Shown here: one piece after another, positions 48,178-49,993 of the stretch
Numbering within the stretch: position 1 is the first letter of the stretch
Layout of the letters: every line of letters begins with the position of its first letter
Assembly: GCA_017472665.1 (NCBI GenBank)
Contig: JAFUOS010000016.1
Location: 1 to 49,993, forward strand
From: Tyzzerella sp.
GTDB lineage: Bacteria; Bacillota; Clostridia; Lachnospirales; Lachnospiraceae
DNA: 49,993 nucleotides
Direction: 5' to 3'
The notes under the pieces: generated by a model
Seen by the model: the letters and a program-made list of their open reading frames with translations, nothing else
Databases searched by the model: none
What the model was told of the DNA's origin: nothing
Translations under genes and position numbers: made by a program

Positions 48178-48206
48178 TTGACAATTTTGAAAACAAGTAG
48201 TACACT
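48178..48206 (+). promoter_or_regulatory. Promoter of the TPP-riboswitch transcript
   Basis: TTGACA (48178-48183) and TACACT (48201-48206) are 17 bp apart, about 16 bp before the riboswitch. Confidence 0.7.
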
Positions 48207-48221
48207 TACTAAGACAATTAA

Positions 48222-48309
48222 AAGGGGCGCTGGTAATTGAGCCGGCTGAGATGAGGTGTATTCACCTCGAACCCAAGAACCTGATCTGGATAATGCCAGC
48301 GTAGGAAGA
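48222..48309 (+). promoter_or_regulatory. TPP riboswitch (THI element)
   Basis: The aptamer consensus is clear: GGGGCGC at the 5' end, GCTGAGAT (48245-48252) as the pyrimidine-sensor core, AACCTGATCTGGATAATGCC (48278-48297) as the pyrophosphate-binding core, then AGCGTAGGAA. The hairpin in between (GAGGTGTATTCACCTC) is the variable P3a arm. TPP binding should favour the terminator that follows and switch off the thiamine gene. Confidence 0.95.
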
Positions 48310-48339
48310 GTACATTTTCGATTATAGAATTGAAATTCG

Positions 48340-48373
48340 AGCACCTGGGTATCCGTATACCTAGGTGCTTTTT
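48340..48373 (+). terminator. Riboswitch-controlled intrinsic terminator
   Basis: AGCACCTGGGTAT (48340-48352) pairs with ATACCTAGGTGCT (48357-48369) around a CCGT loop and is followed by TTTT. It is the expression platform of the TPP riboswitch. Confidence 0.9.
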
Positions 48374-48432
48374 GTACTCCAAACACAAGTCAGGTTCATA
48401 ATCTATTCAAACAAGAAAAGGAGAAGAACATT

Positions 48433-48519
48433 ATGAACGCAAGTGTAGCAATTCAAGTTCTGCCAAAGGCAGAAAACGACGATGAATTAATCCGTATCGT
48501 AGACGAAGTGATTGATTAG
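48433..48519 (+). pseudogene. Thiamine-binding protein gene, interrupted by the IStron
   Basis: The N-terminus MNASVAIQVLPKAENDDELI, then RIVDEVID, matches the small ferredoxin-fold thiamine-binding proteins (MTH1187/YkoF type, about 95 residues), which bind thiamine or HMP for salvage. AAGGAG is 9 bases before the ATG. The frame stops at TAG (48517-48519), exactly where the IStron begins. If the group I intron splices the whole element out of the RNA, the protein could still be made; the rest of the gene lies outside the window. Without splicing the 28-residue product is useless. Confidence 0.75.
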
Positions 48520-48965
48520 AAAAACTTCACGCACACTCGTTACTTCAGTGATGAGTTAGTGAGGAGCAAATAGTCAGCATATACAGAAATGTGTATGTAG
48601 TGATGGGCACTACACCCATCCAATACTACCTGAATTGCTGGAAACCCCTAAAGACAGCAAAACTACAACGCACTGCCTGAAATGGCAGAAACGTGAATGT
48701 GGCGAAAGCAGAAAAAATTTGTTGTATGGTGCAAGGTTAAACCCTAAACACTACAATGCAATGGGCAATCAGCAGCTAAGACCGAAAGGTAAAGTTCAAC
48801 GACTATTCCTCTTGAGGGAAGTACACTGCAAGCGATAGGCAGTGGAAGTGGGTAGCCCCTAACAGGTAAGGCTGAGGGAGAAGATATAGTCTGTGCTTAT
48901 GTGAAAGCATAAGAAGTTCATGAGAGAACTGTACGAAGCGTAGCGGCTTTGTATGAACGATAACC
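48520..48965 (+). ncRNA. Group I intron ribozyme core of the IStron
   Basis: The conserved core is visible. R is GTTCAACGACTA (48794-48805) and S is AAGATATAGTC (48891-48901); their GACTA/TAGTC parts pair as P7. Q-like AATCAGCAGCTAAG is at about 48767. P8 is CACTGC with GCAGTG. P9 is CTTATG with CATAAG at 48906 on. A 5' hairpin, ACTCGTTAC with GTGATGAGT around TTCA (48536-48557), opens the RNA. Translated ORFs in this stretch are short and random. The class is likely IA, as in other IStrons; P1 and the exact splice sites were not resolved by eye. Confidence 0.8.
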
Positions 48966-49037
48966 TCTACACGACAAACAGGACCTTAGGGTTCTTATAT
49001 ATGTTAGTTATGTACTTTGCTTCTATAACTATTGCAA

Positions 49038-49098
49038 ATTGTTTTCATGAAAAACAATCGAACAAATGTTTGTATAATTGAATCGTTTGTGATACAAT
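49038..49098 (+). promoter_or_regulatory. tnpB promoter with LexA-like box
   Basis: TTGTAT (49070-49075) and TACAAT (49093-49098) are 17 bp apart. CGAACAAATGTTTG (49059-49072) overlaps the -35 and fits the Gram-positive LexA box CGAAC-N4-GTTYG. Just upstream, ATTGTTTT and AAAACAAT (49038-49058) form another palindrome. LexA control is inferred from sequence only. Confidence 0.5.
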
Positions 49099-49126
49099 AG
49101 ATTTATGGAAAGTGAGGTGAAACATA

Positions 49127-49993
49127 ATGGAGAAAGCTTATAAGTATCGCATTTATCCAAACAAAAGGCAGAAAGAACTTTTGGAGAAAACCTTTGGATG
49201 TTGCAGATACGTTTATAATCATTTCTTAAATAAACGTATCGAGACATACCAAACTGAGCAGAAAACAATGACTTACAATCAGTGTTCCTTGGAACTGACG
49301 AAATTAAAGTCAGAATTCGAATGGTTAAAGGAACCAGATAAATGTTCTCTGCAAAATGCTTTAAAAGACATGGATAGAGCATATAAGAATTTCTTCAAAA
49401 ACAATGCAGGATTTCCAAAGTATAAGTCCAAGAAAACACACCGTTTTTCTTACCGGACAAATGCAACAAACGGAAACATTGCGTATTGTGAAAAACACCT
49501 TAAGCTTCCGAAGCTTGGCATGGTAAAAACCAGAACCAAGCTGATACCACAAGGCAGAATCCTGAATGCAACCATCACGCAGGAACCAAGTGGGAAATAT
49601 TATGTTTCGCTTTGTTGTACCGATGTAGAAATTCCACAACTCGAAAAAACGGGAAATGAGATTGGCATCGATTTGGGAATCAAAGCCTTTGCCGTTACAA
49701 GCAATGGCGACTCCATTCCAAATCCGAAATATCTGCAAAAGTCTTTGAACAAACTTGCAAGGTTACAGAGAGAGTTGTCTCGAAAAACAAGAGGCGGCTC
49801 CAATTGGAATAAGGCAAGAATCAAAGTTGCAAGACTGCAAGAATACATTGCCAATCAGAGAACGGATTTTCTACAGAAGTTATCTACTAAAATGATTCGT
49901 GAAAATGATGTCATATGCATTGAGGACTTGCAGGTAAAGAACATGATTCGTAACCACAAGTTGGCAAGAAACATTGCAGATGTTTCTTGGTCA
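49127..49993 (+). CDS. tnpB: TnpB RNA-guided nuclease (IS605 family), partial
   Basis: 289 codons are in the window with no stop; a full TnpB has about 370-400. The N-terminal YKYRIYPNKRQKELLEKTFG and RYVYNHFL are typical. The first RuvC acid is Asp182 (GIDLGIKAF) and the second is Glu266 (ICIEDLQVKN). The third acid and zinc ribbon would lie past the edge. TnpB is the ancestor of Cas12 and cuts DNA guided by an omega-RNA made from the element's 3' end, which helps the element persist. GAGGTGA precedes the ATG by 6 bases. Nothing seen suggests loss of activity. Confidence 0.92.
   Translation, partial: MEKAYKYRIYPNKRQKELLEKTFGCCRYVYNHFLNKRIETYQTEQKTMTYNQCSLELTKLKSEFEWLKEPDKCSLQNALKDMDRAYKNFFKNNAGFPKYKSKKTHRFSYRTNATNGNIAYCEKHLKLPKLGMVKTRTKLIPQGRILNATITQEPSGKYYVSLCCTDVEIPQLEKTGNEIGIDLGIKAFAVTSNGDSIPNPKYLQKSLNKLARLQRELSRKTRGGSNWNKARIKVARLQEYIANQRTDFLQKLSTKMIRENDVICIEDLQVKNMIRNHKLARNIADVSWS

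What the first reader, a model, noticed from the sequence alone, without database searches (positions are those of the whole stretch)
48178..49993. IStron inserted into a TPP-riboswitch-controlled thiamine-binding gene
A TPP riboswitch, its terminator, the first 28 codons of a thiamine-binding protein, a group I intron core and tnpB follow each other on one strand. If the transcript escapes the riboswitch terminator, the same RNA must then self-splice to rebuild the reading frame. A metabolite sensor, a ribozyme and an RNA-guided nuclease would act in series on one mRNA, and thiamine status would control how much intron RNA (and perhaps omega-RNA) is made. Layout and motifs are seen; the coupling is inference.
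Basis: partly seen in the sequence, partly recalled or inferred. Interest (0 to 1): 0.85.

Follow-up and report, generated by a model that had tools for sequence, protein, structure and literature searches.

The report
Self-splicing transposon inside a thiamine-switch gene
A jumping gene that carries its own self-splicing intron and an RNA-guided DNA cutter sits inside a vitamin-B1-controlled transport gene; the layout is real, but vitamin B1 control of the cutter is probably incidental, because the cutter gene seems to have its own DNA-damage-type promoter.

Summary
The window is a whole MAG contig (C9) that ends inside tnpB. Contig C7 of the same genome starts with the last 135 bp of the window, finishes tnpB, ends the element with TCAG, and continues in frame with the missing half of the thiamine-binding gene (98 aa). 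Seven congeners carry that gene uninterrupted, each behind a TPP riboswitch, so riboswitch and gene are ancestral and the element is a later insertion. It meets the sequence criteria I could test for a group A IStron (TTGAT target, no target duplication, group I intron, TCAG end, ISDra2-like TnpB); the IA2 subclass was not resolved and splicing is inferred. The thiamine coupling is weak: 1 of 12 IStron-like loci with a scanned 5' flank lies behind a riboswitch, and the intron is about 96% identical at a non-riboswitch site. tnpB also has its own promoter-like leader overlapping a LexA/SOS-type box (CGAACAAATGTTTG), like boxes before uvrA and uvrB in relatives and recA and lexA in this genome. 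Model: the riboswitch sets spliced host mRNA, while DNA damage sets TnpB and guide RNA from a transcript too short to splice. The element is a new member of a known kind; for the SOS-type tnpB promoter my searches found no report.

The parts
48178..48206 (+). host promoter-like site TTGACA-17-TACACT before the riboswitch
   Evidence: 10 of 12 consensus; not enriched over shuffles
48213..48325 (+). TPP riboswitch aptamer
   Evidence: RF00059, 65.0 bits; same family before the same gene in 7 of 7 congeners
48339..48378 (+). intrinsic terminator between aptamer and gene (hairpin 48339-48370, then T run)
   Evidence: fold of 48335-48378 -22.0 kcal/mol; hairpin plus T run between aptamer and ATG found in 6 of 7 congeners (none in L008; no shuffle control made)
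48433..48516 (+). 5' exon: first 28 codons of the thiamine-binding protein gene
   Evidence: joined protein is PF01910 Thiamine_BP
48512..48516 (+). TTGAT target of the IStron (also the likely TAM of its TnpB)
   Evidence: TTGAT as target and TAM of ISDra2: PMC8612924 passages
48517..49993 (+). group A IStron, first 1477 of 1824 bp; the remaining 347 bp are on contig C7 (L005/L018 136-482) and end in TCAG
   Evidence: 88% identical full-length copy in L040
48517..48519 (+). TAG stop codon in frame with exon 1, the first three bases of the intron
48536..48555 (+). left-end hairpin CTCGTTAC-TTCA-GTGATGAG, shared with intron-less IS605-type elements
   Evidence: identical 20 bases in L040, L027, L028, L036, L037, a related hairpin in L060. 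L036 has a full and L028 a shortened tnpA-like frame behind it (by eye); L037 is cut by its contig end; no tnpA or tnpB follows in L027. The C2 copy differs by one base
48573..48577 (+). internal guide sequence GUCAG pairing with UUGAU of exon 1 (U-G wobble at the 5' splice site)
   Evidence: same exon/IGS letters in C9, C2 and L040; pairing drawn by hand
48573..48913 (+). group I intron catalytic core
   Evidence: RF00028, 68.1 bits, model 1-253
48955..48960 (+). GAACGA motif after which IStrons carry their IS part
   Evidence: position; motif rule from PMC4227781
48990..49005 (+). 5' arm of a 16-bp perfect inverted repeat that loops out the tnpB region (3' arm at element position 1722-1737)
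   Evidence: IR stem is a general IStron feature (PMC4227781)
49059..49072 (+). LexA/SOS-type box CGAACAAATGTTTG in the tnpB leader
   Evidence: like boxes before uvrA, uvrB (genes named by eye), recA and lexA
49070..49098 (+). probable tnpB promoter TTGTAT-17-TACAAT (TTG of the -35 and all of the -10 conserved in C9, C8 and L040 copies)
   Evidence: not reported by the promoter scan, whose threshold it misses
49112..49119 (+). ribosome-binding site GTGAGGTG
   Evidence: sequence; conserved in three copies
49127..49993 (+). tnpB, first 289 of 368 codons
   Evidence: PF12323, PF01385, PF07282; TnpB 8bf8 E 5e-102

Best explanation
A group A IStron (group I intron fused to a TnpB-only IS200/IS605-type element) inserted 3' of a TTGAT that ends codon 28 of a thiamine-binding protein gene, which heads a TPP-riboswitch-controlled ABC transporter operon. 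Transcripts from the host promoter that escape the riboswitch terminator contain the whole intron. It is expected to self-splice (exon 1 UUGAU on the internal guide GUCAG, terminal G at the 3' site) and restore the 98-aa frame, and the TAG at intron base 1 stops ribosomes before they enter the ribozyme. A second promoter behind the intron core, overlapping a LexA-type box, is expected to make a shorter tnpB transcript that runs through the right end into exon 2. That RNA lacks the intron core and the 5' splice site, so it cannot be spliced out and can keep the scaffold joined to a guide taken from exon 2, directed at the empty TTGAT-TACATC site. So thiamine sets the level of host mRNA, and DNA damage probably sets TnpB and guide RNA. 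Shown: insertion, frame, empty sites, families, the box and its likeness to SOS promoters. Inferred: splicing, LexA control, guide production, cleavage.
For: Insertion and frame. Empty sites with riboswitch in 7 of 7 congeners with the gene. Intron, riboswitch and Pfam matches. All 5 insertions whose flanking frame I saw read as intragenic and sense: thiamine-BP, ThiF-family gene, ribF, a transporter-like frame on C13 (by eye, no Pfam hit) and an oxidoreductase-like gene in L040 (by eye); 4 of 5 are in the phase that puts TAG in frame (C27 and C13 judged from the 3' side alone). The only ribF found in this genome starts at model position 17 right after the element, so a gene recalled as essential would depend on splicing. 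TnpB matches TnpB 8bf8 (ISDra2, name recalled) over residues 2-359 with the three catalytic acidic residues aligned. SOS box: exact in both IStron leaders of this genome that could be read (C9, C8; the C27 and C13 contigs start behind the leader). The pattern CGAACNNNNGTTYG occurs at 5 places in the genome: recA promoter, lexA promoter, the two IStron leaders, and one inside an ABC-transporter gene. The 5 BLAST hits to the leader in family genomes precede uvrA (2), uvrB (1), a radical-SAM protein (1) and an unknown (1), named by eye.
Against: No RNA data, so splicing, promoter use and guide RNA are all inferred. The C9-C7 join is by overlap that C13 shares. The genome is 65% complete and has no Y1 TnpA hit, so current mobility is uncertain. 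The SOS box is not general to IStrons: L040 has one mismatch, and of 9 other IStron-like loci none has it at the tnpB promoter. In the genome-wide pattern scan the reversed control gave 4 strand-matches against 6, so only the positions, not the count, argue for it. The tnpB promoter is missed by the promoter scan. In 44 viral-contig tnpB leaders the box is not enriched. The C13 copy is not in the TAG phase.
Confidence: 0.7

Rival explanations
1. Riboswitch-gated IStron: most intron, tnpB and omega-RNA comes from the host promoter, so low thiamine raises splicing substrate, TnpB and guide together.
For: Same strand, in series, terminator between aptamer and exon 1. Nothing excludes read-through transcripts from the host promoter, and the inner promoter scores weakly.
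Against: A promoter-like, SOS-type tnpB leader lies behind the intron core. Spliced transcripts would separate scaffold from guide (antagonism recalled from Zedaveinyte 2024; only its title was seen in reference lists, and the paper is not held). Riboswitch context in 1 of 12 IStron-like loci.
Confidence: 0.2
2. Dead insertion: the intron no longer splices and the element is a simple knock-out of the thiamine-binding gene, giving a 28-aa stub.
For: No RNA data; TAG truncates the unspliced frame at codon 29.
Against: Full-length RF00028 match, exon/IGS letters kept in three copies, 5' 513 bases about 96% identical to the C2 copy, intragenic sense insertions in 5 of 5 including ribF.
Confidence: 0.12
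3. Assembly artefact: the end of C9 and the start of C7 belong to different IStron copies or strains, and the gene is not interrupted in most cells.
For: MAG; C7 and C13 share the same 135-bp overlap with C9.
Against: Exon 1 on C9 and exon 2 on C7 make exactly one intact conserved gene, and C13's flank is a different frame. A second pair, C2 and C8, behaves the same way: identical 141-bp overlap and one ThiF-family gene across the element.
Confidence: 0.08
4. Allosteric coupling: TPP binding changes intron folding, as in the c-di-GMP riboswitch-ribozyme of C. difficile.
For: Aptamer upstream of a group I intron on the same RNA.
Against: Terminator and 84-nt exon lie between them. The C2 copy is about 96% identical over its 513 bases without an aptamer. 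Leader-intron duplex energy is not better than shuffles (170 of 200 mononucleotide shuffles reached it).
Confidence: 0.02

Closest known systems
Group A IStrons (CdISt1 and relatives; survey PMC4227781)
   Same: TTGAT target, 3' TCAG, no target duplication, intron starting UAG, GAACGA then IS part, IR stem around the ORF, TnpB without ORF A, intragenic insertion
   Different: Host gene is under a TPP riboswitch, and tnpB has an SOS-type leader; neither appears in the survey sections read (14-16 and part 1 of section 20)
ISDra2 of Deinococcus (TnpB, TTGAT; PMC8612924 passages)
   Same: TnpB homologous over residues 2-359 with catalytic residues aligned, same target motif
   Different: No group I intron in ISDra2 (recalled); it carries tnpA, and no tnpA was seen in this element
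c-di-GMP riboswitch plus group I intron of C. difficile (described in PMC3984707 passages)
   Same: Aptamer upstream of a group I intron in one RNA
   Different: There the aptamer controls splice-site choice; here aptamer and intron look independent and the intron is a transposon
SOS-regulated transposases such as those of ISCR elements (PMC13393415: abstract start, passage)
   Same: A transposon protein put under LexA control
   Different: Different family; here the gene is the RNA-guided nuclease tnpB and control is only predicted from sequence

Membership tests
Group A IStron | Group I intron upstream of IS200/IS605-type ORF B on one strand | tested here: met
Group A IStron | Intron of class IA2 | tested here: inconclusive
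   RF00028 does not assign a subclass; P7.1/P7.2 and P9.x were not modelled one by one
Group A IStron | Insertion 3' of TTGAT (or ATTAT, TTTAT) without target duplication | tested here: met
   TTGAT in 3 of 3 copies with a visible 5' flank (C9, C2, L040); no duplication for the window copy by comparison with 7 empty sites
Group A IStron | 3' end TCAG | tested here: met
   5 of 5 visible 3' ends (C7, C8, C27, C13, L040)
Group A IStron | Subterminal hairpins and IR stem around the ORF region | tested here: met
Group A IStron | Self-splicing in vivo | not testable with these tools
   only comparative support
RNA-guided TnpB nuclease | RuvC acidic triad and zinc ribbon | tested here: met
   alignment to 8bf8, PF07282; read on the C9+C7 join
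RNA-guided TnpB nuclease | omega-RNA from the right end | not testable with these tools
   right-end region folds into hairpins (no shuffle control); no RNA data
TPP riboswitch | THI-box aptamer over gathering score before a thiamine gene | tested here: met
LexA/SOS regulon | CGAACRNRYGTTYG-type operator at the promoter (this consensus recalled; GAACN4GTTC for B. subtilis in PMC4234289) | tested here: met
LexA/SOS regulon | LexA present in the genome | tested here: met
LexA/SOS regulon | Induction by DNA damage through LexA | not testable with these tools
   needs an experiment

The most novel reading that the evidence does not exclude
The IStron splits its two jobs between two signals. Transcripts from the host promoter (here thiamine-gated) carry the full intron and are spliced. 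Transcripts from an internal LexA-repressed promoter lack the ribozyme, cannot splice, and so keep scaffold and guide together. SOS induction then arms TnpB against the empty site just when single-stranded DNA and repair templates are abundant. This would resolve the conflict between splicing and guide RNA production by promoter choice. It would also make TnpB an SOS-induced RNA-guided nuclease, and some intron-less IS605-type elements may do likewise (boxes before tnpA or tnpB).
Probability: 0.45. Interest if true: 0.8.

Novelty: new member of a known kind. Interest (0 to 1): 0.5.

Why it matters
The in-series layout predicted from one contig end was confirmed by a second contig and seven empty sites, so this is a clean natural example of an intron-bearing transposon in a metabolite-gated gene. 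The tnpB leader matters more. If LexA controls tnpB, the element has a way to make guide-bearing RNA that its own ribozyme cannot destroy, and TnpB activity would be tied to DNA damage. That can be tested with one reporter fusion and one RNA-seq experiment.

Tried and rejected
Allosteric TPP control of splicing: rejected as unlikely. A clear antiterminator for the riboswitch: the fold gave a pairing GAGUACA/UGUACUC that encloses the terminator and does not break it, so the off/on mechanism is assumed from the family and not shown.

Recurrence of the riboswitch layout: not found. Twelve IStron-like loci had a 5' flank that I scanned at gathering threshold: the window, C2 (L017), L040, and 8 viral contigs and 1 plasmid picked by intron-core BLAST, of which 3 pass RF00028. 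Only the window has a riboswitch. L276 (Fusobacterium) gave no intron-core hit and is not counted. The other group I introns over the cut-off in 397 family genomes (G270 once, G184 twice) showed no TnpB similarity in their 3.3-kb loci; for L120 and L125 I read the neighbouring frames, which look like membrane proteins of a conjugative element by eye.

SOS box as a general IStron feature: rejected. It is exact in C9 and C8, has one mismatch in L040, and is absent at the tnpB promoter of 9 other IStron-like loci (the match in L235 lies in the IR stem; L275 was scanned for 190 bp only). As a general tnpB feature: mixed. 9 of 76 genome tnpB leaders against 1, 1, 4 and 0 for four permuted patterns (80 loci, 4 dropped for short upstream; L056, L057 and L061 are close relatives). 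10 of 88 family leaders within 600 bp against 0-7 for 11 permuted half-sites, strict form 6 against 0-4, but only 1 of 88 within 150 bp and 2 of 88 within 300 bp (one of the 10 is this genome's own C8 copy). Most of the hits lie 450-490 bp before tnpB, where tnpA would be in tnpA-tnpB elements (gene order not checked there); several look like one related IS family, so they are not independent. 1 of 44 viral leaders within 600 bp against 0-4.

Literature: no report of LexA control of tnpB or of a riboswitch-IStron was seen in the listings (open-licence library only; the listings were capped). PMC4234289 lists one C. difficile transposase with GAAC....GTTT at -217 (passages only). Zedaveinyte 2024 is not held; what I say of it is recalled.
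Full report
1. What is there. The window is the whole of contig C9 of a 1.66-Mb, 65%-complete MAG. Near its right end, on the + strand, lie a promoter-like site (48178-48206), a TPP aptamer (48213-48325), a terminator hairpin (48339-48370 plus T run), an ATG at 48433 with 28 codons, a group I intron core (48573-48913) and an open tnpB from 49127. The Rfam matches are well over gathering scores. The promoter and terminator scans alone are not above chance.

2. The missing half. 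Contigs C7 and C13 both start with the last 135 bp of C9, the usual sign of an assembly break in a repeat. On C7, tnpB ends, the element closes with GGGAGGTTCAG, and the next base opens TACATCAAATCA..., which continues the 28 codons in frame to a 98-aa protein. That protein is Pfam Thiamine_BP (E 2.9e-26) and resembles the solved structures 1yqh, 2ibo and 1vk8. An ABC permease, an NMT1/THI5-like binding protein and an ABC ATPase follow on C7. C13 instead continues into an unrelated membrane-protein-like frame (no Pfam hit). The element is 1824 bp long by this join.

3. Empty sites. Among 10 genomes of the genus (own included), 8 have the gene. The 7 relatives carry it uninterrupted and collinear across the junction, with no duplicated or lost base, and all 7 have a TPP riboswitch before it. 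A hairpin with a T run lies between aptamer and ATG in 6 of the 7 (no shuffle control). So the riboswitch and gene are old and the element is a newcomer.

4. Other copies. In the same genome, C2 and C8 carry the two ends of an element in a ThiF-family gene (in frame, GAT|TTT) and overlap by 141 identical bases; C27 begins inside an element that ends in ribF, and C13 inside one that ends in a transporter-like frame. L040 (MAG labelled Tyzzerella, a Lachnospiraceae genus) has a full-length copy, 88% identical, in an oxidoreductase-like gene (gene named by eye). All 5 insertions read as intragenic and sense, and 4 of 5 are in the phase that makes TAG an in-frame stop; the C13 copy is not, and C27 and C13 were judged from the 3' side alone. 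The binomial chance is 0.031 for orientation (5 of 5) and 0.045 for phase (4 or more of 5 at 1/3), both from very small samples. The survey PMC4227781 reports 58% intragenic and 54% of those in frame.

5. Why it should splice. Exon 1 ends in UUGAU, which can pair with GUCAG at 48573-48577 with the U-G wobble at the splice site; the letters are the same in C9, C2 and L040. The element ends in G. The intron core matches RF00028 end to end and is aligned with three other family introns. A stop codon at intron base 1 keeps ribosomes out of the ribozyme, as discussed in PMC4227781 (part 1 of the discussion). ribF is found once in the genome, starting at model position 17 directly after the element. 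It is recalled as essential, so a copy that did not splice should be costly. All of this is inference; there is no RNA.

6. TnpB and guide. The joined TnpB (368 aa) aligns over residues 2-359 with TnpB 8bf8 (E 5e-102; that it is ISDra2 TnpB is recalled) with three acidic RuvC positions in register (D191 and E278 from PMC8612924 passages; the third is recalled). The very best PDB hit is an AI-designed nuclease, 9yyg (E 6.1e-113). ISDra2 uses TTGAT as target and TAM, with a guide RNA from the element's right end whose 3' end matches the target. By analogy the guide here would be the start of exon 2 and the target the empty thiamine gene.

7. Where tnpB RNA comes from. Between the IR stem (48990-49005) and tnpB is a leader with TTGTAT-17-TACAAT, a ribosome-binding site, and CGAACAAATGTTTG overlapping the -35. 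C9 and C8 share the 14 bases exactly while nearby bases vary; L040 has one mismatch. The search of 397 family genomes with the 5' 610 bp of the element had returned five short hits to this leader. They precede uvrA (2), uvrB (1), a radical-SAM protein (1) and an unknown (1), named by eye from the translations. In this genome CGAACNNNNGTTYG occurs at 5 places: recA promoter, lexA promoter, two IStron leaders and one coding site (RecA and LexA by Pfam). The reversed-pattern control has 4 strand-matches against 6, so the evidence is position, not number. Intron-less elements with the identical left-end hairpin (L028, L036) have GAACAAATGTTT before a HUH-transposase-like tnpA frame (by eye; full in L036, shortened in L028), and L060 has a related hairpin and a GAACATTTGTTC box before tnpB. 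Wider counts are mixed and given in Tried and rejected.

8. Reading. A transcript from this inner promoter lacks the intron core and 5' splice site, so it cannot be spliced and can keep the scaffold joined to a guide. Host transcripts contain the whole intron and are consumed by splicing. Thiamine would then mainly set host mRNA, and DNA damage would set TnpB and guide. A side effect would be riboswitch-independent transcription into the transporter operon during SOS, since I saw no terminator at the right end (by eye; not scanned). These are predictions.

9. Against it. No RNA data; MAG assembly; the SOS box is limited to this IStron lineage; the inner promoter is missed by the scan; no Y1 TnpA was found in the incomplete genome.

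10. Verdict. It is weak on thiamine control of the nuclease. The element is a new member of group A IStrons; the riboswitch context looks accidental; the SOS-type tnpB promoter is the lead worth testing.

Noticed in passing
L036 1557-1568, L028 1557-1568; L150, L162, L171, L172, L201 upstream of tnpB: Intron-less IS605-type elements of the family carry LexA-type dyads (GAACAAATGTTT, GAACACTTGTTC). In L036 and L028 the box lies right before a tnpA-like frame (shortened in L028); in the others it lies 326-475 bp upstream of tnpB, close to a TATAAT-like -10. Possible SOS control of IS605 transposases in general.
   Followed up: partly
L056, L057, L061, L085, L060 leaders of tnpB: tnpB genes of Paraliobacillus, Oceanobacillus and Anaeromonas also have GAACNNNNGTTY 68-96 bp before the start; in L056, L061 and L085 it sits near the -35 region of a TATAAT promoter (by eye).
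   Followed up: partly
L021 (G000:C27) 1-1193: Another IStron copy ends directly in ribF; the 5' part of ribF was not found in the assembly, so a gene recalled as essential appears to be intron-split.
   Followed up: partly
L120 1501-1830, L125 1501-1830, L121 1501-1830 (minus): Group I introns with a core like the IStron's but without TnpB similarity; beside L120 and L125 lie membrane-protein genes that look like those of a conjugative element (by eye).
   Followed up: partly
L225, L227, L228, L234, L235, L238, L239, L248: IStron-like elements (intron core plus tnpB) in contigs classed as viral in IMG/VR, so phages or prophages may carry group A-like IStrons.
   Followed up: no
L040 6486-8293: Group II intron pieces lie about 1.3 kb downstream of the IStron in the Tyzzerella contig.
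   Followed up: no
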